NCBI RefSeq assembly: GCF_003144325.1
Contig: NZ_PENS01000001.1
Coordinates: forward strand, 186,001-250,000
Reading direction: 5' to 3'
Origin: Proteus terrae
GTDB lineage: Bacteria; Pseudomonadota; Gammaproteobacteria; Enterobacterales; Enterobacteriaceae
Length of the DNA: 64,000 bases
A program made the translations under genes and the position numbers. The notes beneath the pieces were generated by a model. It was not told the DNA's origin. It did no database searches and worked only from the letters and a program-made list of their open reading frames with translations. Below, piece after piece: positions 37,162-54,765 of this stretch (position 1 is its first letter; each line of letters opens with the position of its first letter).

Positions 37162-37851
37162 TTAGAAACGGGCAGAGAAACGATATCCCGTTCCACGTAC
37201 TGTCTGTATCATTCTGTCATGACCATCTTCTTCGATGGCTTTACGTAAACGACGAATATGCACATCAACAGTACGGTCTTCGACATAAACATTCGTTCCC
37301 CAAACATAGTTTAGCAGTTGTTCTCTGCTATACACGCGTTCAGGATGTGTCATAAAAAAGTGCAGGAGTTTAAATTCGGTAGGTCCCATATCAATCGGTT
37401 TATCTTGACTCGTTACTCGATGAGAAACAGGATCAAGTCCTAATCCATTGAATTCAATAATATCTTCCGAAGACATTGGTGATAATCGTCGTAAAATTGC
37501 TTTCACGCGAGCCACAAGCTCTTTAGGTGAGAAAGGCTTAATGACGTAATCATCAGCACCCGTTTCTAACCCTTGAACTTTATCTTCTTCTTCCCCTTTT
37601 GCTGTTAGCATAATAATTGGAATATCACGGGTGTTACTTTCCCGCTTCATCTGTTTTATTATCTGCAAGCCTGATCCACCAGGGATCATCCAATCTAATA
37701 AAACCAGATCAGGGTAAGGATCAATAAGAAAGCTCAATGCAGAATCATAGTCTTCTGCTTCAATAGGCTGAAAACCATTTTGTTCCAAAACAAAACAGAT
37801 CATCTCTCGAATTGCGGTTTCATCTTCAACAACAAGAATACGCCTTGCCAT
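37162..37851 (-). CDS. phoB: Phosphate regulon response regulator PhoB
   Basis: A 229-residue OmpR/PhoB regulator. The receiver has the acidic pocket (VVEDE), the phosphoacceptor Asp in [10 protein letters not shown] and the lysine in [16 protein letters not shown]. The winged-helix DNA-binding domain ends with [16 protein letters not shown] and [10 protein letters not shown] Pho box precedes the gene, so it is autoregulated. Confidence 0.97.
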
Positions 37852-37888: not shown

Positions 37889-37921
37889 ATTATGATGCAG
37901 TTTTATGACAGATTTATGACT
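37889..37921 (-). promoter_or_regulatory. Pho box of phoBR
   Basis: On the minus strand three 11-base units stand in a row: TTAGTCATAAA, TCTGTCATAAA and ACTGCATCATA. These match the PhoB direct-repeat consensus CTGTCATAAA. A -10 candidate (TATACA) lies about 15-20 bp further towards phoB, so PhoB would replace the -35 element. Confidence 0.85.
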
Positions 37922-38072
37922 AACCTTAACATTACTGAAATAGATCCCAGTTGTTAAGGTAAATAAATCATTTTTCGGTGAAATATCACTCAAAAAGAAG
38001 GCTTATTGTTGGATTTTCACTAAAAAAGTAAGGTGCGCTATACTCTTCATCAGATAAAAAAGAGGAATAGCA

Positions 38073-43850: not shown

Positions 43851-43885
43851 ATCTCTCATTTAAGTCATTCACAGTTATTTTTAAT

Positions 43886-43960
43886 AAAAAAAAGAGCAAA
43901 GTGCGCAATGAATACAAAGGTAGGGATGGACCCTTTGTGTTCAACACTTTGCTCTCTTTA
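43886..43960 (-). terminator. Branched terminator after the nucleotidase gene
   Basis: AGAGCAAAGTG (from 43893) pairs with CACTTTGCTCT (to about 43955). Inside it ACAAAGG pairs with CCTTTGT, so the fold is a long stem with an internal arm. On the minus strand it is followed by a run of T residues. A second stem (GCACCTT with AAGGTGC, 43970-43995) lies between it and the gene end. Confidence 0.75.
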
Positions 43961-44022: not shown

Positions 44023-45645
44023 TTATTTACGTGTGATGTTATTTGCTTTTGGTTGAGCAATTGGAGACTGCTCAGCAAAATATTTCACGACTGCATCAAC
44101 ATCTGGCACGCTGTAAACTGGATCTTTACCTTCTTTCAGTACAGAGAAGTTACTACCACCTGTTGCTAAGTATTCGTTAGCCACAACACGGTAAGATGCT
44201 TTCATATCCACTGGTTTGCCATCAATTTTCATTGATTCGACGATAACACGGTTACCATTAGAGGCTTTGCTATCCCATGTATATTGGAAGTTGCCTGAAA
44301 CAGCTAACACTTGTGGACGTGAACGATCCCATTGTTGTTCTAATAGGCGTTTGATTTGTTCACCCGTTAACGTTTGAGTTAACAGTACGTTAGAGAATGG
44401 CTGTACAGTGTAGATTGCGTTATAAGAAACATCACCACCAGTCATATCAGCACGAATACCACCACTGTTCATAAATGCGATTTGTGCACCACCCATATCT
44501 TTTGGTTTTGCAGTATATAAATGCGCATCAGCAATCACTTGACCCAGTGCAGATTCACCCGCGTCATTCGTTTGCTTGTTCAGGTTACCTTCTAACTTAC
44601 CGATAATACGATTAGCTAATGGGGTAGCAATTTTTTCGTAAGCTTCTAACAGTTTAGTAACTGCTGGATCTTTTTCGTATTTACGGTTATCAACCCAAAT
44701 GTTACGAGCTTCGATATCAACAACATCTTTCGTTGTTTTATCTAATTTCAGGTCGATACGCGTTAACATTGCACCATTAGACTGTGCCGATGTCACTGAT
44801 TTACCGTTGATAGTACAGTTATAAGCTTGGTGAGTATGACCAGTCACAACGAAGTCGATAGCTGGATCTAATTGTTCAACAACACCCAGTACTTTACCTG
44901 TAATACCATTACATGCGTTGATATTAACTGGACCACCATCACGACGCTGTGCAGCACCTTCGTGGATCAGAACACCAATTGCTTGAACGCCTTTTGCTTT
45001 TAACTGAGGCACTAATGCGTTAATTGTTTTTGCTTCATTGTGGAAGCTTAAGCCTTCGGTTCCTTTAGGGGTTACGATAGCCGCAGTACCTTCTAAAGTT
45101 AAACCGATGAATGCAACAGGAATACCGTTGAATTCTTTAATAACGTATTCTGGGAATAATGTTTTGCCAGTTTCGTTAACAATAACGTTAGCCGCTAAGT
45201 ATTGGAAATCTGCGCCTTTAAACTCAGTTGGGCCTTGGCAACCCGTTACTGGGTGACAACCACCGTTTTGTTTACGCAGTAACTCGCCCATGCCTTTATC
45301 AAATTCGTGGTTACCCACTGAAGTTGCTTCTAAGCCTGCTAATGATAATGCTTCGATTGAAGGCTCATCATGGAACATTGAAGATAACAGTGGGCTTGCA
45401 CCAACCATATCACCCGCCGCAACAACGATGTTGTTTGGGTTATCTTTCTTCATTTCTTTAATTAACGTAGCCATGTGCTCAATACCACCAGGTTTGTTTG
45501 GACCTGGCGCTTTTAGCGCACCGTGGAAGTCGTTCATTGCGATAACACGCACATCAACAACATTAGCTTCGTCGTAGTTTTTTGCACAACCTGCTAATAA
45601 GACTGAGCTTACAGCAAGTGCAACGAGTTTATATTTATGGTTCAT
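44023..45645 (-). CDS. Lipoprotein 5'-nucleotidase/metallophosphatase (UshA/CpdB superfamily)
   Basis: A 540-residue protein of the two-domain 5'-nucleotidase family. The signal ends in a lipobox (VSSVLLAGCAKNYDE), so it should be lipid-anchored in the envelope. The N-terminal metallophosphatase motifs are MNDFHGAL, AAGDMVGASP, GNHEFDKG, LIHEGA and GHTHQAY. The C-terminal substrate domain has FMNSGGIRADM and TGGSNFS. It is clearly different from E. coli UshA in sequence, so I give no symbol. It would remove phosphate from nucleoside monophosphates or split dinucleotides such as NAD. It lies 19 bp after the RNase gene, supporting a joint role in RNA use. Confidence 0.88.
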   Translation of the reverse strand: MNHKYKLVALAVSSVLLAGCAKNYDEANVVDVRVIAMNDFHGALKAPGPNKPGGIEHMATLIKEMKKDNPNNIVVAAGDMVGASPLLSSMFHDEPSIEALSLAGLEATSVGNHEFDKGMGELLRKQNGGCHPVTGCQGPTEFKGADFQYLAANVIVNETGKTLFPEYVIKEFNGIPVAFIGLTLEGTAAIVTPKGTEGLSFHNEAKTINALVPQLKAKGVQAIGVLIHEGAAQRRDGGPVNINACNGITGKVLGVVEQLDPAIDFVVTGHTHQAYNCTINGKSVTSAQSNGAMLTRIDLKLDKTTKDVVDIEARNIWVDNRKYEKDPAVTKLLEAYEKIATPLANRIIGKLEGNLNKQTNDAGESALGQVIADAHLYTAKPKDMGGAQIAFMNSGGIRADMTGGDVSYNAIYTVQPFSNVLLTQTLTGEQIKRLLEQQWDRSRPQVLAVSGNFQYTWDSKASNGNRVIVESMKIDGKPVDMKASYRVVANEYLATGGSNFSVLKEGKDPVYSVPDVDAVVKYFAEQSPIAQPKANNITRK

Positions 45646-45664
45646 TTAAAATTTATCCCTAAGA

Positions 45665-46441
45665 TCAAAATTCACGTTTCGGACAATCAATTACTTCGAA
45701 ATCTTTGCTATAACAGATATAGAATTCATCTCGATTAATTTGAATTTCTTTATCCTTCAGTGATGGATTGTGCTCTTTTAAGAACTTAATCAATGCACTA
45801 TTTGAAGGACGGCCTTCTGGTAATACTAACGCTTCATACAACTCTTTTTGTTTACCAAAGAATGCATCTGGTGTATCAAACGCACACACACCGTGTTTTT
45901 CCCATTCACCTTGTAACAGATCAATACCTGGAGAATCACACAGATAAGGTTTAATAGCAGAGTATTCTAAAGGTGGTAAATCGCCTTTACATAAACGAGG
46001 ATGCTTGCGTATGTCTTTCCAATCGCGGCACTCTTCCCATGATTTACCATCACAGGTTTCAGCCCACAGCCCATGAACAATCCAGCCAAATTTGTTATCA
46101 GAGAAACACTGAATTTCAAATTTATCGTACTCACGTTTTGCACGATCTTTTTCATTATCGTTATTTAAACGTTTAATATTATTACTTTTATAATCACAAA
46201 AAGCCGGTGAGTAGTTAATCGCTAACTTAAAATAATCTGTTGATGCAGTGCTGTTTTGACCATAGCGATCATTAGAAGCAATGTAGTCGTAAGGTGCCGT
46301 TGGAGCATCAGGTAAAATACAAGATACGCCTTCAACTAATTTAGCTTGAGGTTTTAATGGTTCTGTAATTTCAGGTGCTTGCGTTGCACATCCTGCTAGC
46401 ACTAAAGCAAAAGCAGCAGGTAATAGCTTCATAAAGCGCAT
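45665..46441 (-). CDS. rna: Lipoprotein ribonuclease of the T2 family (RNase I-like)
   Basis: A 258-residue nuclease that cuts RNA through 2',3'-cyclic phosphate intermediates. The two catalytic segments of RNase T2 are present: WIVHGLWAET (CAS I) and GEWEKHGVCA (CAS II), each with the active-site histidine. Several cysteines could form the usual disulfides. The N-terminus MKLLPAAFALVLAGCATQ is a lipoprotein signal, unlike the plain Sec signal of E. coli RNase I, so this enzyme is probably membrane-anchored. An ATG three codons into the frame is an alternative start. It is placed between cpdB and a 5'-nucleotidase, matching a substrate-product order. Confidence 0.88.
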   Translation of the reverse strand: MRFMKLLPAAFALVLAGCATQAPEITEPLKPQAKLVEGVSCILPDAPTAPYDYIASNDRYGQNSTASTDYFKLAINYSPAFCDYKSNNIKRLNNDNEKDRAKREYDKFEIQCFSDNKFGWIVHGLWAETCDGKSWEECRDWKDIRKHPRLCKGDLPPLEYSAIKPYLCDSPGIDLLQGEWEKHGVCAFDTPDAFFGKQKELYEALVLPEGRPSNSALIKFLKEHNPSLKDKEIQINRDEFYICYSKDFEVIDCPKREF

Positions 46442-46494
46442 AAAATCCCCTTAAAGAGCAATAAAATCTACTCTCTTGGTTCAAAAAAGGTAAG

Positions 46495-46520
46495 AAAAAC
46501 CTGCCCTGAACGGGCAGGTT
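46495..46520 (-). terminator. Terminator or attenuator between cpdB and the RNase gene
   Basis: On the minus strand CCTGCCC, loop GTTCA, GGGCAGG is followed by TTTTTCTT. It lies just past the cpdB stop. Only about 55 bases remain before the RNase gene, so downstream genes probably depend partly on read-through. Confidence 0.85.
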
Positions 46521-46527
46521 TAATTGC

Positions 46528-48483
46528 TTATTTCTTCTCAGTTAAATCGATTTTGTAAATTGCAAAACCAATTTCATCATTTTCCACGAAGGTCATTGGA
46601 TATTGAGCGAAATCTTTAATAAATGCAGCCGCTTTTTCACTTGGTGAAGTTTCAAAACGGACATCTAACGCTTTATCAGTCTTAATAGGTAAGAATGACC
46701 AGTTGTTAGCAGCTTTAGTCGCAACTTCGCCTTTTTCTTTAGTTTGTTTAGCAATGTAAGAAGCTAAGATTGCACGGTTTTCATCTGGAGATGCAAACGC
46801 AATATTCGCTTCACCAGTACCAGCGAACTTACCGCCGTATCCACGGTAGTTATTTGTTGCGATCAGGAATGTTGCTTTAGGATCGATTGGTTTGCCTTCA
46901 TAAGTCACATCTTTGATACGATTCGCATCTTTGTTAACCACTTGGCAATCAACGTCATATTTAGCTGGTTGAGTTAAGTCAACTTTATAGTTCACACCGC
47001 TAATGGTGTCGAAGTTATAAGTACGGAAACCATCCCAGTTGATCAGTTCTTGTGGTTTAGTTGAATTAGGATCAACTTGGTTCCACATACCTGCTGAACA
47101 TTCTAACCACTCAACAACATCAGCACCGGTCGCTTTAACAACCACTAATGTGTTTGGATACAGATATAAGTCTGCTGCATTACGGAATGTTAAGTCACCT
47201 TTTTCAACTTCTACGAAGTCTGCTGGTGCGTTTTTACGACCGCCCGCTTTAAATGGCGCAGCTGCACCTAATACTGGTAAACCGTCTAAGTTCGGATCAC
47301 CTTGAATAAAGTGTTTGGTGTAATCAACTTGTGCATCATTAACGATTTGTACAGTTGGATCACTTTGTACTAATGCTAAGAAGCTGTACATGTTGGCAGA
47401 AGCTTTACCAATGTGTTTACCCACGAAATCACGGGTACCTTGGTGTGCTTTTTCGATGATTTGAGCTAATTCAGCATCACGTTCAACTAATGCTTTTTTG
47501 TTTGCTTTATCAAAGATAGGACGCGCTTCACCTGTTGCTTCGGTCATCACCCATTTACCGCTGTCGTTATTGATAACCATATCAACGACACCTAAGTGAT
47601 CACCCCATTGGCCTGGCATAACAGCAGGAACACCATTTACGGTACCTTTCGCTGTATCTACGCCTTTAATGCCTTCAAATTCTTTGCTTGGGAATACGCC
47701 ATGAGCGTGACCAAACATGATTGCATTGATACCTTCAACTTCGCTTAAATAATAAACAGAGTTTTCCGCCATTGCTTTGTATGGCTCTGACGCGAAACCA
47801 GAGTGAGGAATAGCCACAATCAGGTCAGCACCCTCTTTTTTCATTTGAGGGACGAATTTTTTCGCTGTTTCTGTAATATCGTTTACAACGACCTTACCAT
47901 CCAGATTGGCTTTATCCCAGATTAAGATCTGTGGTGGTACGAAGCCGATATAACCAATCTTGATAGTGTGTTCTTTACCATCACGATCTTTTACTGGTGT
48001 ATCAACAATGATATAAGGTGTGAAATAGTTTTTGCCTGTTTTCGCATCCATCACGTTGGCGTTGATGTAAGGGAATTTAGCACCGGCAATGGCTTTTTTC
48101 AGGTAATCTAAACCATAGTTGAATTCATGGTTACCAAAGTTACCTACTGTGTAGCCCATGGTGTTCATCAGCTGGTGAGCTGGATGAGATTCGCCTTTTT
48201 CTAAGCCTTTAGCTGCTTGATAGTCAGCCAGCGGGCTACCTTGGATCAAGTCGCCGTTATCAACTAAAATCGCATTGGTTGCTTCAGCTTTTGCTGCTTT
48301 AATTAAATTAGCAGTACGGACATAACCAAACTGTTCTGTTGGTTTGTCTTTGAAGTAGTCAAAGTCGATTAAGTTACTGTGAACATCAGACGTCTCCATA
48401 ATACGAAGATCGACTGTCGCAGCATTCACGTTGAATGCGACAAACATTGCTAATGTTGAAATTTTCAACACATTCTTAACCAT
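46528..48483 (-). CDS. cpdB: 2',3'-cyclic-nucleotide 2'-phosphodiesterase/3'-nucleotidase
   Basis: CpdB (651 residues) opens 2',3'-cyclic nucleotides released by RNase I and removes the 3'-phosphate, giving nucleosides in the periplasm. A Sec signal ([14 protein letters not shown]) precedes [17 protein letters not shown]. Metallophosphatase motifs are [26 protein letters not shown] and FGHAHG. The nucleotide-binding C-terminal domain has [14 protein letters not shown]. It follows the porin gene by about 85 bp. Confidence 0.96.
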
Positions 48484-48510
48484 TACACACCCCTTATATA
48501 TTGGTTAACA

Positions 48511-48530
48511 GGAGAGCAAAATGGCTCTCC
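48511..48530. terminator. Stem-loop between porin and cpdB
   Basis: GGAGAGC and GCTCTCC form a 7-bp stem over a 6-base loop. There is no T-tract on the minus strand, so it probably lowers or tunes expression of cpdB relative to the porin. Confidence 0.45.
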
Positions 48531-48569
48531 TTTCGTTACTTCTGTCAAACGGTAGTGCCTTTACTAGGA

Positions 48570-49769
48570 CTAGAAGTACAGACGCATACCCGTTTCGAAG
48601 ATATATTGTTTTTTATCTTCATACTTCACGTTATCACTGCGAGCATCATCGTATGCCATTTCAGCGAATAAACGTAAGTTGTTATATTTAGATACTGCAA
48701 AACGTTTATCTACACCCACAGTATAGGTTTCTTTTTTGTAGTTGAACGTGTTTGCATCACCATCACGCAGGTAGTAACCCGCATACATACCACTTTCAAT
48801 ACGATCCCAGTGCCATTTCACACCAACACCATATAAATCTGCTTTCCAGTTGCCTTTAACTGAGTTCCAACCACGTGGGCTATTATATTGGTTTTCATAG
48901 AGAGCTAAGCCAGGGTTTTTACCACGAGATTGACCATAGTCTAAACCAATAGAAAATTCACGGCCTGGGAAGAAGTATTCTGCACCAAAAGCTAAGATAC
49001 TGTTTTCAGGTGTTTTATCTTTATTTGGACCTGAATTGTTTGCTTCACCTTTAGCTGCAGAATAACCTGCATCAAATTCTAAGCCGAAGGTTGATTTATA
49101 GAAACCAACTAATGAGTAAGCTCGTGTAATATCACCTGCAACACGACGACCATCATCACCTGTTTTACCCGTTACAGTACCTGCTAATTTAAAGCCTTCA
49201 TAACGGTTAGTTTCAATAAAAATAGTTTGTGGTAAACGAGTCATAAAGTTGTTTTTACCAACACCATTCGTATTTACATATTTACCATTAACGCTCGTTT
49301 CACCACCAGAATAACCGACTGAACGACCTAATACATCGCTAAAGTAGAATACACCGGTGTTACCATAGCCATAGCTTGATTTTTTCACCCAGTCGATCGG
49401 AATATAAGTACGACCAAACTGAATTTGTCCATAATCACGATGAGAGAAACCGACATAACCTACACGGTTGTACATTTCAAAGTTTGATTTAGGGTTGTCA
49501 CTGTTAGTTTTTTGAGTGTCTGAACCCCACTCTAATTTACCAAAAACTTTGATATCGTTAGTCAGTTCATGCGAACCAAAGAAACCAATACGACTACCAT
49601 CATCCGTCATTTTCATTTCATGATTTTGGCTAGTCACTTGCGTTTTTAAACGGAACTGACCATTCACATCAAAACGTGTACCTTTATCGTTATACACGTT
49701 TACTGCGTTTGCAGATCCAGAAAGAACCAACAAACCAACCAGTGCTGCTAGAGGCTTCAAGCTTTTCAT
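48570..49769 (-). CDS. Outer-membrane porin (trimeric, Gram-negative porin family)
   Basis: A 399-residue beta-barrel porin. The signal peptide is MKSLKPLAALVGLLVLSGS with cleavage after ANA. Strands such as FDVNGQFRLKTQVTS, DIKVFGKLEWGS and YVGFSHRDYGQIQFGR alternate with loops. The chain ends in the expected aromatic C-terminal residue (ETGMRLYF), recognised by the BAM complex. Overall it resembles OmpC/OmpF-type porins but is divergent. I chose the ATG giving MKSLKPL (GGGT upstream) over one five codons earlier. As first gene before cpdB, RNase and nucleotidase, it may admit oligonucleotides or nucleotides; that is inference. Confidence 0.9.
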   Translation of the reverse strand: MKSLKPLAALVGLLVLSGSANAVNVYNDKGTRFDVNGQFRLKTQVTSQNHEMKMTDDGSRIGFFGSHELTNDIKVFGKLEWGSDTQKTNSDNPKSNFEMYNRVGYVGFSHRDYGQIQFGRTYIPIDWVKKSSYGYGNTGVFYFSDVLGRSVGYSGGETSVNGKYVNTNGVGKNNFMTRLPQTIFIETNRYEGFKLAGTVTGKTGDDGRRVAGDITRAYSLVGFYKSTFGLEFDAGYSAAKGEANNSGPNKDKTPENSILAFGAEYFFPGREFSIGLDYGQSRGKNPGLALYENQYNSPRGWNSVKGNWKADLYGVGVKWHWDRIESGMYAGYYLRDGDANTFNYKKETYTVGVDKRFAVSKYNNLRLFAEMAYDDARSDNVKYEDKKQYIFETGMRLYF

Positions 49770-51095
49770 GATTAAAATACCCATCTATTTTCTATAGTTT
49801 TATGATTTCCTTTAAGGTCAAAAATAATACCGCCGTATATAATTGACCTGAGATTCAGACAAAAGATCTCTGCCACGAATTTCGAAAAAGAAAATCGCTC
49901 TCACAATTGATAATTTTTATAGCTACTAATTATGACTCTACAAAATCTTCTTAAAGGTTTTAATTTCCTTGACACAGACGTAATCACCAATAAGACACAA
50001 AAATAATATCCTCATTATATTTAAATAAGGGCATTGCTTTTATTTCTGTTAGGAAAAGAAATAGGTTGTTGAGTTTTCAATGGCATGTTACTCAAAAAAA
50101 AGCCCTACTTTCGTGATGTAGCCCACAATTACATCAATGTGCATTTTCATGGTTACATACCCAAGTGATAGGTATCACAATTAAAGGTAAAGATACGTGT
50201 TTTTTGAACTTAATCAACTTTTTAAAAATAGCACTTTTGGATTTTTCTTTTATATTTCATTTCTTTATAAGACTCTTTTTTTTGCTAATAAAAAATTTAT
50301 CTCCCTATTTAATATATTTAAAAGGAAGTATTAATTTTAACCACTAAATAAATAACACTAAAGATTTGAATATTGTTATTCTTAATTAATAATTTTTATT
50401 CTTTATATTTATTTCTTATTTAAATAAAGGCAAAGTCGAATTTAAATACAATTTAACTAGTGATAACGAGTAGCACGCTATCATAAAAAGAATAATTATC
50501 TGCAAATATTAAAAAGAGAAGCATAAGAATACCATTCAATCACAATATCTAATCAATACGTACAAGTAACAACAAAACCCAATCAAACATTACAAAATCT
50601 AAATTATTACCATGGTTAACATAAAAAGCCCAATAGTACTCTTTTATCGATATTTGAAAAAAAAATATCAAAATTTGTGATCGAAATCACTTTGTTTGTT
50701 GTGAAAAGCCCCCTCCTACATTTTCCTAATTTTGTGATAATTATCACATGATAGTGTCAGGAATATTTTTGTTTTGTAAATTATTGCAGGGATAAATCTG
50801 AAAGTGATTTCAGTTTGTAAACAAAAAGAGTATAAAAATAAAATTATGTGATTATTATCACATAATGATTTGTGCTAAAAATCATGTTATTTCATTATCA
50901 AAACTCTTAATTAATTAGACACAAATAAGAATAAAACTCATTATCATAGAGTAGAGTTACTAATTATTCGTTTCAGCTTTTTTACCTTTTTATTAAATAA
51001 CACTGCATAGATTTCCTTTTAAGGGATATTACCTTTTAGATACCCTAAACATTCAGTATCATATTGTGGTAAATAATGATTAAGGGGAATGTCAG
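49770..51095. promoter_or_regulatory. 1.3 kb gene-free region with four CRP-like palindromes
   Basis: No convincing gene is seen. Four sequences fit the CRP box TGTGA-n6-TCACA: AGTGATAGGTATCACA (50164-50179), TGTGATCGAAATCACT (50676-50691), TGTGATAATTATCACA (50733-50748, both half-sites perfect) and TGTGATTATTATCACA (50847-50862, extended to ATTATGTGA and TCACATAAT). The first is about 400 bp ahead of the porin start. The last is about 240 bp ahead of rdgC. The porin promoter and the rdgC promoter must lie here. A short hydrophobic frame at 50165-50347 is not credible. Confidence 0.65.
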
Positions 51096-52071: not shown

Positions 52072-52314
52072 TTATTTTTGAATTAAATAACGGATAGTCG
52101 GACCATCTTGTTGAATATCTAATACGGTATATCCGTAATTTTTCGCATCAAGTGGAATATTGTTGATTGATTGAGGACAATCACTCACCACTTCTAATAT
52201 TTCGCCTTTTTTCAGTGATGGCATAGCTTCAAGCGTTGCCACCGCAGGATAAGGACAAGGTTCACCGACCATATCTAGACGATAATCAGGAATAATAGTG
52301 TCTTTCTGGCTCAT
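52072..52314 (-). CDS. yedF: YedF, TusA-like sulfurtransferase
   Basis: An 80-residue SirA/TusA-family protein. The persulfide-carrying cysteine is in DMVGEPCPYPAVATLEAM, the canonical CPxP motif, and the C-terminal half (DCPQSINNIPLDAKNYGY) is typical. Its start overlaps the end of yedE by four bases. The pair is linked to sulfur or selenium handling in enterobacteria; the exact acceptor is not known. Confidence 0.93.
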   Translation of the reverse strand: MSQKDTIIPDYRLDMVGEPCPYPAVATLEAMPSLKKGEILEVVSDCPQSINNIPLDAKNYGYTVLDIQQDGPTIRYLIQK

Positions 52315-53537
52315 GCAATTTCCTTATTAATCTGCGTTGAAATAGATTGTGCTTGTTGGGCTTTTTTACGGAAAAAATGTTTTTCCCACCAAAGTAATAA
52401 TACAAATGACACACCAAGCATCAGATACGTCACACCTAATCCCCCCACGGGGCCAAAGGTATCAAGTAAATTAATCTTGTCATAATCCGTTGCGATCACT
52501 GAGGCAAAATCATCCCAATAATAAGCCAGTAATGTTGAACCTATTACGTTACCAAGCCCAACCCACCAAAAGTGAATTTGGCCTTCAACGGCACGATACA
52601 TCCAACCCGTTTCACATCCACCGGCCAAAACAATACCGAAACCGAAAAGCAAACCACCAATGACGGCATTCGGTCCTGCCCACATAATTTTAGGTGCAGC
52701 ACCTAACTGAACATAGCTGAAGATCCCAATCGCACTCACCGCCATACCGATGATAATCGCTTTTGCCATATGGGTTCTGCCTGTTATCCATAAGTCACGG
52801 AAAGCAGAAGTAAAACAGATTTGCGCACGTTCAATTAAAATACCAAAACCAATACCGCCTAACATAGCGAAACCCAGTTTTGGTGAATCAAAGAGAATAA
52901 TTAAAGACCACGCAATCATGGCAAAAAAGATCACCATTCCCAATCTAAAGCGGCGCTTCGCACGTTGTTTATCTTGAGTGATAGGTGAAGCTTGACTGAC
53001 TTTTTGCAGTTTTACCGGAATACGAAACAGAGGCATCAATGATAATTTGGCACCAAAGTAAGAGCCGATTGCCGTTGCAACAGCAAAAAACCAAGCATGT
53101 AAAGAGAACTGAGGAATGCCAGTAAAGAAAGCAGCAAGGTTACACCCCATTGCTAGACGAGCACCAAAACCTGCGATGATCCCACCTAGAACAGCTTGAA
53201 GAATACGAATTTTATGCTGAGGATGACGAAGTTTGACGTTGTTAGCCCAAAGAGCGGCCATAATACAACCTCCAAACATTCCGATAATCATCACGCCATC
53301 AATACGCGTTAATGGCGTACCTTCAAGACCGATGATTTTAAAATAACCCCATTCTTCAGGATGAGCACCAAACCATTGCATAACGTGACCGCCCCAACGA
53401 GTAAATTCACCCGTGACAGCCCAGAAAGTGCCGGTTAAACCAAAGTAGTAAGTTGATAAGATACCTGCCGCAATAACAGCTGGAAGAGGCTTCCAAAAAC
53501 GGATCAGGTATTGAGATTTAAATTCTGACCAAGACAT
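52311..53537 (-). CDS. yedE: YedE, YeeE/YedE-family membrane transporter (selenium/sulfur)
   Basis: A 408-residue inner-membrane protein with about ten hydrophobic segments. The paired family repeats with a conserved cysteine are GFGARLAMGCNLAAFFTG and GIVLAGGCETGWMYRA, with a further cysteine in IERAQICFTSAF. YeeE-type relatives import thiosulfate; YedE occurs in selenium-using bacteria and has been proposed to move a selenium compound. It lies between yedF and the hyp genes, which suits a function tied to anaerobic metalloenzymes. Confidence 0.92.
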   Translation of the reverse strand: MSWSEFKSQYLIRFWKPLPAVIAAGILSTYYFGLTGTFWAVTGEFTRWGGHVMQWFGAHPEEWGYFKIIGLEGTPLTRIDGVMIIGMFGGCIMAALWANNVKLRHPQHKIRILQAVLGGIIAGFGARLAMGCNLAAFFTGIPQFSLHAWFFAVATAIGSYFGAKLSLMPLFRIPVKLQKVSQASPITQDKQRAKRRFRLGMVIFFAMIAWSLIILFDSPKLGFAMLGGIGFGILIERAQICFTSAFRDLWITGRTHMAKAIIIGMAVSAIGIFSYVQLGAAPKIMWAGPNAVIGGLLFGFGIVLAGGCETGWMYRAVEGQIHFWWVGLGNVIGSTLLAYYWDDFASVIATDYDKINLLDTFGPVGGLGVTYLMLGVSFVLLLWWEKHFFRKKAQQAQSISTQINKEIA

Positions 53538-53695
53538 GTTTTTTCCTAGAGCTTACCTCTACGAGAGACCCTCTCCACGCAGTAGGATTGGCCGAACATG
53601 TTACTCCAATAATTTTTTTATCAAAGAGTCAGTATTCAGATAAATGAGAGAAATTTGCGTTATAACAAATTTTTTGTAACAGATAGGTAACTTAT

Positions 53696-53735
53696 CCCAC
53701 TTATAAATCTTGTGATCATTCAATCTATAAGTGGG
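53696..53735 (-). terminator. Stem-loop closing the hyb-hyp operon
   Basis: CCCACTTATA and TATAAGTGGG form a 10-bp stem around a loop of about 20 bases, 11 bases past the hypE stop on the minus strand. It lacks a strong T-tract, so read-through into yedE is possible. Confidence 0.5.
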
Positions 53736-53745
53736 TAATAAGTGA

Positions 53746-54765
53746 TTAGCAAATACGGGGTAATGGTTCGTTATAGGGTAAATCAAGAATACGGCTAGTC
53801 CCGAAAATTCCTGTTAACCGAATATAATTATCCTCGGTAACTTCACCAATAGTACAAGCGTCTTTACCTAAAGTATGTTGATGTAATGCTTCAAGTACTT
53901 GAGCTTCAGCTTCTGGTGATACCACTAAAACAATTTTTCCTTCGTTAGCAAAATTTAGTGCTTCAAGCCCTAATAATTCACAAACGCCACGAACAGATTG
54001 TTTCATTGGTAATTTGCTTTCATGCACATTCATGCCACAACCACTGGCTTGAGCAAACTCATGTAAAATTGCGGTCACTCCGCCTCGTGTTGCATCACGT
54101 AAGGCGCGAATTCCTTTAATTTGACGTAAAGGTGCAATCATTGGCTCAAGAACAGCGCAGTCACTTTGTAGATCCGCCTCTAATCCTAAATTTTCACGCA
54201 GATTCAGGATTGTTGCGCCGTGATCACCAATAGTACCGCTCACTAAGATCTTATCGCCCGCTTTGATATTGCTTGCCGCCCAATTAATTGCTGTTGGAAT
54301 AACGCCAATACCCGCAGTATTGATAAAGATCTTATCCGCAGCACCACGAGGAACGACTTTCGTGTCCCCTGTGACAATCTGTATTCCTGCTTGCGCAGCT
54401 GCTTTTGCCATCGCCATCACAAGGATTTCTAGGGTTTCAAATGGAAGCCCTTCTTCAAGAATAAAACCACAGGAAAGGTAACGAGGAACCGCACCACCCA
54501 CAGAAAGATCGTTAGCCGTACCACAAACAGATAATTTACCAATATTTCCACCGGGGAAAATAATGGGATCGATGACATAGCTGTCGGTACTAAATGCAAG
54601 TCGATCGCCAAGAGTGGTTAACTCATTTAACGCGATCCGCGCTTGGTCTTCTTTTTCATTTAATAATGGGTTATCGAACGCTTTTAAAAACAGTCCTTCG
54701 ATAAGCTGTTGCATACCTTGCCCACCATTTCCTTGGGCTAAGGTGATTTCATCAGGTTGTTTCAT
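53746..54765 (-). CDS. hypE: Hydrogenase maturation protein HypE
   Basis: HypE (339 residues) dehydrates the carbamoyl group passed by HypF onto its C-terminal cysteine, forming the thiocyanate that gives the cyanide ligands of the NiFe site. The PurM-like ATP-binding fold shows LAQGNGGQGMQQLIEG, FSTDSYVIDP and VTGDTKVVPRG. The protein ends in PRIC, the required terminal cysteine. HypF is not in this window. Its start overlaps the end of hypD. Confidence 0.96.
   Translation of the reverse strand: MKQPDEITLAQGNGGQGMQQLIEGLFLKAFDNPLLNEKEDQARIALNELTTLGDRLAFSTDSYVIDPIIFPGGNIGKLSVCGTANDLSVGGAVPRYLSCGFILEEGLPFETLEILVMAMAKAAAQAGIQIVTGDTKVVPRGAADKIFINTAGIGVIPTAINWAASNIKAGDKILVSGTIGDHGATILNLRENLGLEADLQSDCAVLEPMIAPLRQIKGIRALRDATRGGVTAILHEFAQASGCGMNVHESKLPMKQSVRGVCELLGLEALNFANEGKIVLVVSPEAEAQVLEALHQHTLGKDACTIGEVTEDNYIRLTGIFGTSRILDLPYNEPLPRIC

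What the first reader, a model, noticed from the sequence alone, without database searches (positions are those of the whole stretch)
44023..49769. Candidate envelope RNA-scavenging cluster: porin, CpdB, lipoprotein RNase T2 and lipoprotein 5'-nucleotidase
Four neighbouring minus-strand genes encode successive steps: entry through the outer membrane, RNA cleavage to 2',3'-cyclic nucleotides (RNase), opening and 3'-dephosphorylation (CpdB), and 5'-dephosphorylation. In E. coli rna, cpdB and ushA are scattered. Here they are grouped, and two of the enzymes have lipobox cysteines, so they could sit on the outer membrane, perhaps exposed. This reads as a dedicated system for obtaining nucleosides and phosphate from RNA in host tissue or urine.
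Basis: partly seen in the sequence, partly recalled or inferred. Interest (0 to 1): 0.75.

Follow-up and report, generated by a model that had tools for sequence, protein, structure and literature searches.

The report
CRP-controlled RNA and nucleotide salvage cluster
Proteus bacteria keep four envelope genes side by side that should turn small RNA pieces into nucleosides, behind a switch laid out like the one at a classic nucleoside-breakdown gene; the enzymes are of known kinds, but I found no description of the grouping or its switch.

Summary
The four genes are real: a divergent porin, CpdB, a lipoprotein RNase T2 and a lipoprotein 5'-nucleotidase. The order is kept in 10 of 10 named Proteus loci and in Xenorhabdus hominickii, eroded in Photorhabdus, and reduced to cpdB-RNase in Moellerella. 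Of 80 named RNase loci (capped list), 62 have no cpdB nearby. The strongest new evidence is upstream. Two CRP-type sites, one strong and one weak, lie exactly 52 bp apart with a -10-like hexamer at the class II position. This holds in 11 of 11 Proteus sequences aligned, X. hominickii and two Photorhabdus. In the window's 4.1-Mb genome the tandem layout occurs twice: here and in front of deoC. No Pho box was found upstream. This favours nucleoside salvage under catabolite control over phosphate starvation. CRP binding, CytR control, enzyme activity and surface exposure are not shown. Known enzymes, new arrangement.

The parts
48570..49769 (-). Divergent Porin_1-type outer membrane porin (alternative start 49784); one of two Porin_1 matches in the genome
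   Evidence: (43.2 bits against 409.9 for the general porin on C5)
48510..48531 (-). Hairpin AGGAGAGC..GCTCTCCT between porin and cpdB, without a T-run
46528..48483 (-). cpdB: 2',3'-cyclic-nucleotide phosphodiesterase / 3'-nucleotidase with a signal-peptide-like N-terminus
   Evidence: NF006938 and TIGR01390 above their cut-offs
46497..46521 (-). Hairpin between cpdB and the RNase gene, perfect 10-pair stem, followed on the minus strand by TTC (GGTTTTTC with the stem's own T's); terminator-like by eye
   Evidence: stem in 17 of 17 loci folded plus the window. The pattern scan lists it only as a + strand terminator
45665..46441 (-). RNase T2 family lipoprotein (LVLAGC lipobox); the only PF00445 match in the genome
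44023..45645 (-). Lipoprotein 5'-nucleotidase (LLAGC lipobox), best NCBIfam match the C-terminal half of YfkN-type multifunctional enzymes; not UshA by cut-off
50164..50179 (-). Distal CRP-type site TGTGATACCTATCACT (9 of 10 half-site bases)
50112..50127 (-). Proximal, weaker CRP-type site TGTGGGCTACATCACG (8 of 10), exactly 52 bp from the distal one
50085..50090 (-). Predicted -10 hexamer TAACAT, 22-27 nt after the proximal site (class II position); predicted transcription start near 50078
   Evidence: TAACAT in 10 and TAATAT in 1 of 11 Proteus rows; TATTAT at the same offset in X. hominickii, Ph. bodei and Ph. namnaonensis
50676..50862 (-). Three further conserved CRP-type palindromes (50676-50691, 50733-50748, 50847-50862); target unknown (this promoter at a distance, or rdgC)
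43885..43959 (-). Very long hairpin with T-run after the nucleotidase gene; probable end of the cluster

Best explanation
The cluster is a catabolite-controlled nucleotide salvage unit of the Proteus lineage. When preferred carbon runs out, cAMP-CRP binds two sites 52 bp apart (centred near -41.5 and -93.5) and drives the porin and cpdB, with read-through or a second promoter for the RNase and nucleotidase. The porin lets mono- and short oligoribonucleotides into the periplasm. The RNase T2, tethered by its lipid to the outer membrane, cuts oligoribonucleotides to 2',3'-cyclic nucleotides. CpdB opens these and removes the 3'-phosphate, giving nucleosides plus phosphate. The tethered 5'-nucleotidase does the same for 5'-nucleotides. 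Nucleosides then enter the cell and are broken down by deo-type genes under a promoter of the same layout. Shown here: gene identities, conservation, lipoboxes, the conserved CRP-type sites and their match in layout to the sites at deoC. Inferred: enzyme activities, localisation, CRP binding, transcription start, substrate entry and physiological role.
For: Families with curated cut-offs. The two RNase T2 catalytic motifs (HGLW and EWEKHG) are invariant in 40 of 40 aligned rows. The modelled fold matches RNase T2 enzymes, at modest TM-scores of 0.41-0.56, and the profile finds E. coli RNase I 2ea1 at 4.4e-11. Four-gene order in 10 named Proteus loci and X. hominickii. Tandem CRP-type sites exactly 52 bp apart, with a -10-like hexamer at nt 22-27 after the proximal one, in 11 of 11 Proteus rows, X. 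hominickii, Ph. bodei and Ph. namnaonensis. The tandem layout occurs at exactly two places in the genome, this cluster and deoC (deoC confirmed by TIGR00126), with 0 control matches. It is at the cluster in 19 of 19 further unnamed same-genus genomes and 3 of 4 g162 genomes (these overlap the named ones). The udp CRP-CRP gap in PMC3454398 is 30-31 bp (passage), equal to 52-53 bp centre to centre if sites are 22 bp long (recalled). A printed statement that RNase I products would be hydrolysed by periplasmic CpdB is in PMC9958556 (passage). YfkN-type models join a CpdB-like part and the part matched by this nucleotidase. [quoted passage not shown] mirabilis was reported in 1968 (Center and Behal, title seen in reference lists).
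Against: No expression, binding or growth data; CRP itself was not searched for in the genome. The hairpin between cpdB and the RNase gene suggests partly separate expression. The porin is reduced to a remnant or missing in 5 of 5 named Photorhabdus, the nucleotidase is missing in 3 of these 5 and truncated in unnamed G180, and Moellerella lacks both, so the enzymes do not need all four partners. The 52-bp pair was not found in Ph. tasmaniensis, Ph. australis, Ph. asymbiotica or Moellerella. CytR half-sites in the spacer are weak (6 of 8 twice; 7.6% of random window 36-mers do as well). RNA polymer cannot pass a porin. UshA and a second secreted nucleotidase exist elsewhere in the genome, so the function is partly redundant.
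Confidence: 0.6

Rival explanations
1. Two neighbouring units rather than one system: a CRP-driven porin-cpdB operon, followed by a separately expressed RNase-nucleotidase pair that settled behind the conserved cpdB locus. The shared theme is real, but there is no dedicated RNA pathway.
For: Hairpin after cpdB in 17 of 17 loci folded. cpdB sits beside rdgC and fructokinase without RNase or porin in the two g13 genomes (L138, L140). The nucleotidase occurs with a different, OprD-family porin in G132.
Against: The T-run after the hairpin is interrupted in P. mirabilis, P. columbae and P. cibi and absent in X. hominickii and Moellerella, and the pattern scan does not call a minus-strand terminator there, so read-through is plausible. 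The cpdB-RNase pairing survives in all five named Photorhabdus and in Moellerella.
Confidence: 0.25
2. Turnover of the cell's own RNA or of the 2',3'-cyclic nucleotide signal: the RNase degrades RNA leaking from dying or stressed cells, and CpdB clears the cyclic nucleotides it makes, with no role in feeding on foreign RNA.
For: In E. coli RNase I makes the detectable 2',3'-cyclic nucleotides (PMC8765455 passage), and CpdB is proposed to hydrolyse them (PMC9958556 passage). RNase and CpdB stay together where porin or nucleotidase is lost.
Against: It does not explain a co-located divergent porin, a 5'-nucleotidase, or a deoC-like CRP layout.
Confidence: 0.15
3. Phosphate scavenging under PhoB, as described for UshA, PhoX and CpdB in Vibrio cholerae.
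For: The enzymes release phosphate. V. cholerae uses UshA, PhoX and CpdB to take phosphate from nucleotides and DNA (PMC10694654 passage). phoB lies about 6 kb from the cluster's downstream end.
Against: No Pho-box match within 3 mismatches in the upstream gap; the same scan finds one (2 mismatches) just upstream of phoB, though 9 matches in the window against 5.6 expected is weak evidence either way. The CRP layout points to carbon status.
Confidence: 0.08
4. Hydrolysis of extracellular cyclic dinucleotides or host nucleotides to dampen immunity.
For: CpdB-like enzymes of other bacteria act on cyclic dinucleotides, and cpdB is pro-virulent in some pathogens (abstract starts in the listings).
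Against: It explains neither the RNase, nor the porin, nor the CRP layout, nor its retention in Photorhabdus and X. hominickii.
Confidence: 0.04

Closest known systems
E. coli RNase I (rna) plus CpdB plus UshA
   Same: Same expected chemistry in the periplasm: RNA to 2',3'-cyclic nucleotides to 3'-nucleotides to nucleosides, and 5'-nucleotides to nucleosides. The CpdB is the same family by equivalog cut-off.
   Different: In E. coli rna is not next to cpdB or ushA in the 8 kb viewed. E. coli Rna aligns at only 24% identity over 156 columns, while a Haemophilus relative aligns at 39% over 262; no tree was made. Rna's N-terminus shows no lipobox. The nucleotidase is not UshA, which the genome also has.
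CytR/CRP nucleoside regulon promoters (deoC, udp, nupG and others)
   Same: Two CRP-type sites about 52 bp apart. The only other such layout in this genome is at deoC. CytR is encoded.
   Different: The deoC spacer holds a perfect CytR octamer; the cluster spacer only weak ones. cpdB, porin, nucleotidase and ushA do not occur in the main text of the comparative CytR study, whose genome list includes P. mirabilis (PMC3454398: section 5 read, term counts; supplements not seen).
YfkN-type trifunctional 2',3'-cyclic phosphodiesterase / 3'-nucleotidase / 5'-nucleotidase
   Same: One protein model joins a CpdB-like part and a part that is the best NCBIfam match of this 5'-nucleotidase.
   Different: Here the two are separate genes with an RNase between them, and one is a lipoprotein.
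Haemophilus NadN / e(P4) nucleotide and NAD salvage
   Same: Secreted phosphatases, one anchored in the outer membrane, turn nucleotides into nucleosides for uptake (PMC10694654 passages).
   Different: Aimed at NAD as well. The nucleotidase here is far below the NadN cut-off (81.2 against 436 bits). The RNase relatives found in Haemophilus have no cpdB near them.
Vibrio cholerae UshA / CpdB / PhoX use of extracellular nucleotides and DNA
   Same: The same enzyme classes feed on extracellular nucleotides (PMC10694654 passage).
   Different: Described as a phosphate source; I know of no clustered RNase T2 and porin there (recalled, not searched).

Membership tests
RNase T2 family | Curated Pfam score | tested here: met
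   PF00445 33.8 bits, cut-off 26
RNase T2 family | Catalytic motifs CAS I (HGLW) and CAS II (EWxKHG) | tested here: met
   Invariant in 40 of 40 aligned rows; motif names recalled
RNase T2 family | RNase T2 fold | tested here: met
   Model pLDDT 86.9; the six Foldseek hits with E below 0.001 are RNase T2-type proteins, TM-scores 0.41-0.56
RNase T2 family | RNA cleavage to 2',3'-cyclic nucleotides | not testable with these tools
   Needs an enzyme assay
CpdB | Equivalog models above cut-off | tested here: met
   NF006938 1109.1 of 486; TIGR01390 1065.7 of 883
UshA | Equivalog model NF007109 above cut-off | tested here: not met
   170.9 of 600; another protein of the genome scores 939.3
5'-nucleotidase family (Metallophos + 5_nucleotid_C) | Both Pfam domains above cut-off | tested here: met
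   35.3 and 138.9 bits
NadN | TIGR01530 above cut-off | tested here: not met
   81.2 of 436
General porins OmpC / OmpF | Subfamily or equivalog score | tested here: not met
   OmpC 46.6 of 484, OmpF 34.1 of 583; only the N-terminal part aligns, so it is Porin_1-like but divergent
Outer membrane lipoproteins (RNase and nucleotidase) | Lipobox with cysteine and no aspartate at +2 | tested here: met
   the sorting rule is recalled. True location and leaflet not testable
CRP regulon | Conserved TGTGA-N6-TCACA sites at a promoter position | tested here: met
   binding not tested, and the promoter position rests on a predicted -10
CytR regulon | CytR half-sites between the CRP sites | tested here: inconclusive
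   Best octamers 6 of 8 twice; 7.6% of random 36-mers reach this. deoC spacer has 8 of 8
Pho regulon | Pho box upstream | tested here: not met
   the hit upstream of phoB served as a control, consensus recalled

The most novel reading that the evidence does not exclude
A dedicated outer-membrane RNA-feeding apparatus. A specialised nucleotide porin works with an RNase and a nucleotidase tethered by lipid to the outer membrane, perhaps on its outer face. It is switched by the same CRP and CytR logic as deo, so that cytidine or adenosine released from RNA induces the machinery that liberates more of it, and Proteus can grow on RNA as a carbon source.
Probability: 0.2. Interest if true: 0.7.

Novelty: new variant of a known kind. 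Interest (0 to 1): 0.5.

Why it matters
RNA is abundant in dying tissue and in the gut, yet feeding on it is rarely treated as a dedicated bacterial trait. A compact locus with a recognisable nucleoside-regulon layout upstream makes that testable in one organism with a few deletions. It would also extend the CRP (and perhaps CytR) nucleoside regulon outward, from uptake and breakdown of nucleosides to their production in the envelope.

Tried and rejected
Rejected: phosphate-starvation control, because no Pho box was found in the upstream gap while one hit lies just upstream of phoB. Rejected: a known regulatory RNA in or around the cluster; at E up to 1 Rfam gave two hits, both below their gathering scores, frnS 29.4 bits of 60 and Arrc14 26.6 of 99. 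Rejected: RNase as a close E. coli Rna ortholog; the protein has no match at E 0.001 in the 16 other genomes of the family, while PF00445 finds RNase T2 proteins in five of these 16, and identity to E. coli Rna is 24%. Rejected: the nucleotidase as UshA or NadN.

Led nowhere: the porin model had mean pLDDT 37.3, so nothing is said about pore or selectivity. CytR half-sites in the cluster spacer were not above background. Sigma-70 scanning found fewer promoter-like sites than shuffles (14 against 23.7) and did not list the predicted promoter. CRP matches with up to 2 mismatches over the whole window are not above chance (32 against 37.06); only matches with 0-1 mismatch are unusual, 4 of 5 lying in this 1.3-kb gap. 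The reversed control pattern still gave 4 perfect matches against 18. The tandem pattern was drawn up after seeing the cluster, so the independent results are the second hit at deoC, the zero controls there, and the recurrence. In one search the control pattern matched twice in 29 genomes; extra matches were not followed (one coding-looking repeat each in G012, G013, G014 and G016, and two more in G341). The named loci are the best 80 of 120 found. My first guess that the gene at 53746-54765 is selD was wrong: it is hypE. Literature: searches were looked at as listings (10 of 68 listed), with passages of PMC10454023, PMC4905662 and PMC9958556; none described the cluster. Searches were likewise listings, with passages of PMC10694654 and PMC8765455. 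Papers outside the held open library are not covered.


Full report
What is there. The window lies in a 4.1-Mb genome (G000 C11:186001-250000, 38 contigs); named relatives with 99-100% RNase identity are Proteus. On the minus strand, in transcription order, lie a porin, cpdB, an RNase T2 gene and a 5'-nucleotidase gene. Gaps are 86 nt (porin-cpdB), 86 nt (cpdB-RNase) and 19 nt (RNase-nucleotidase). CpdB passes its equivalog cut-offs. The RNase is the only PF00445 match of the genome. The nucleotidase is one of four 5_nucleotid_C proteins; the others are CpdB, UshA (939.3 bits) and an unlinked secreted one that passes neither the UshA nor the NadN cut-off. The porin is one of two Porin_1 matches and far weaker than the other (43.2 against 409.9 bits).

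Enzymes. The RNase catalytic motifs are invariant in 40 of 40 aligned rows (window plus 39 of the 80 loci). The model is good (pLDDT 86.9), and the six Foldseek hits with E below 0.001 are RNase T2-type proteins, E. coli RNase I among them, at modest TM-scores. A profile of the family finds RNase I first in the PDB. Sequence identity is 24% to E. coli Rna and 39% to a Haemophilus relative. Lipoboxes: the RNase has one in 18 of 18 loci of Proteus, Photorhabdus, Xenorhabdus and Moellerella. Of 13 other relatives printed none shows one; most begin with a membrane-anchor-like stretch, L056 with an ordinary signal-like start, and the start of L041 is unclear. One further MAG (L086) does show a lipobox-like start in the alignment. 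The nucleotidase lipobox is present in 13 of 13 loci printed. No aspartate follows the cysteine, so by the recalled sorting rule both go to the outer membrane. Which face they lie on is unknown.

Conservation of the group. One search kept the best 80 of 120 relatives. Of these 80 loci, 18 have cpdB directly upstream: 10 Proteus, 5 Photorhabdus, X. hominickii (the same 16.8 kb twice in one assembly, so 2 loci) and Moellerella. The other 62 have no cpdB match in the DNA held, some of which is short. Of the 18, 14 also carry the nucleotidase and 12 a full porin. Four Photorhabdus keep only a porin match of 57-92 residues and the fifth none; the unnamed G180 has a truncated nucleotidase. In the family sample the RNase occurs in 10 of 392 genomes and 3 of 154 genera. 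Of the 30 cpdB loci I viewed 8, chosen outside the genomes with a known RNase: none has RNase or porin within the 1.5-kb flanks. Two of them (g13) have rdgC, a fructokinase gene (L138) and then cpdB, which suggests the cluster grew around a cpdB already beside rdgC. In G132 a 60% identical nucleotidase lies beside an OprD-family porin instead: pairing of this nucleotidase with a porin is seen with two unrelated porins.

Control. The 1.3-kb gap upstream of the porin holds four of the five CRP palindromes with at most one mismatch in 64 kb, and two of the 18 perfect ones in the genome (reversed control 4). All four recur at matching positions in the 10 named Proteus loci, except that the third exceeds one mismatch in two. 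Half-site columns are 7 to 10 of 10 invariant, spacer columns 0 to 2 of 6. A fifth, weaker site (8 of 10) lies exactly 52 bp downstream of the nearest strong one. This pair, with a -10-like hexamer at nt 22-27 after the weaker site, is in 11 of 11 Proteus rows (TAACAT in 10, TAATAT in 1), X. hominickii, Ph. bodei and Ph. namnaonensis (TATTAT in all three). It is not in Ph. tasmaniensis, Ph. australis, Ph. asymbiotica or Moellerella. In the whole genome the tandem layout occurs twice: here, and between nupC and deoC in front of deoC, with a perfect CytR octamer in its spacer; the reversed control gave none. In 29 further genomes it marks the cluster in 19 of 19 same-genus and 3 of 4 g162 (Photorhabdus) genomes, and a deoC-like sequence in 16 of 19 and 2 of 4; the deoC position was checked only in the window's genome. 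It is in none of the other 6 genomes. CytR cassettes in print have CRP-CRP gaps of this size for udp (PMC3454398, section 5 read and passages; site length recalled). CytR is encoded (630.7 bits of 436), but CytR half-sites here are not above background.

Results against a tight single operon. A hairpin between cpdB and the RNase gene is kept in 17 of 17 loci folded, from Proteus, Photorhabdus, X. hominickii and Moellerella. Its T-run is good in many Proteus and the Photorhabdus, interrupted in P. mirabilis, P. columbae and P. cibi, and absent in X. hominickii and Moellerella. The pattern scan lists it as a terminator on the plus strand only; the minus-strand reading is mine. Photorhabdus have lost the porin, and some the nucleotidase or the promoter. 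Regulation of the RNase-nucleotidase pair is therefore open.

Mechanism. Porins pass small solutes, so intact RNA is not a plausible cargo. Short oligonucleotides and nucleotides, made outside by host or bacterial RNases, are. Inside, RNase T2 should yield cyclic nucleotides and CpdB take them to nucleosides; this hand-over is proposed in print for RNase I and CpdB (PMC9958556, passage). The 5'-nucleotidase should serve 5'-nucleotides. [quoted passage not shown] mirabilis in 1968 (Center and Behal; title seen in reference lists only).

Novelty. Every enzyme is of a known kind. The grouping, the lipoprotein form of this RNase and the deoC-like layout in front of a porin and cpdB were not described in the listings and passages seen. 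I rate it a new variant of a known kind, of moderate interest.

Noticed in passing
window 43885-43959 (- strand): A roughly 75-nt hairpin with T-run after the nucleotidase gene is nearly invariant, loop included, in the 10 named Proteus loci (0-3 differences in 49 nt). It may be a 3'-derived small RNA as well as a terminator; no Rfam family reaches its threshold.
   Followed up: partly
window 50676-50862: Three conserved CRP palindromes far upstream (57 and 114 bp apart) lie 234-420 bp from the rdgC start on the other side; which gene they serve is unclear.
   Followed up: partly
L126:6660-9646 (genome G132): A 60% identical lipoprotein nucleotidase sits behind an OprD-family porin, a second porin-nucleotidase pairing with an unrelated porin.
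   Followed up: partly
loci L042-L101 versus L023-L040: The same RNase T2 branch looks membrane-anchored in the Pasteurellaceae printed and secreted in one Janthinobacterium, but is a lipoprotein in the Proteus group: anchoring seems to have changed.
   Followed up: partly
window 37905-37922 (- strand): Pho-box-like sequence (2 mismatches) just upstream of phoB at 37162-37851.
   Followed up: no
window 52311-54765: YedE/FdhT-type selenium membrane protein gene downstream of a hypE gene (TIGR02124), on the same strand.
   Followed up: partly
L127:7957-9522 (own genome C12): A further secreted nucleotidase-type protein, neither UshA nor NadN by cut-off, unlinked to the cluster.
   Followed up: no
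L037 and L038: The X. hominickii assembly holds the same 16.8-kb region on two contigs, a real duplication or an assembly artefact; treated as one region here.
   Followed up: no
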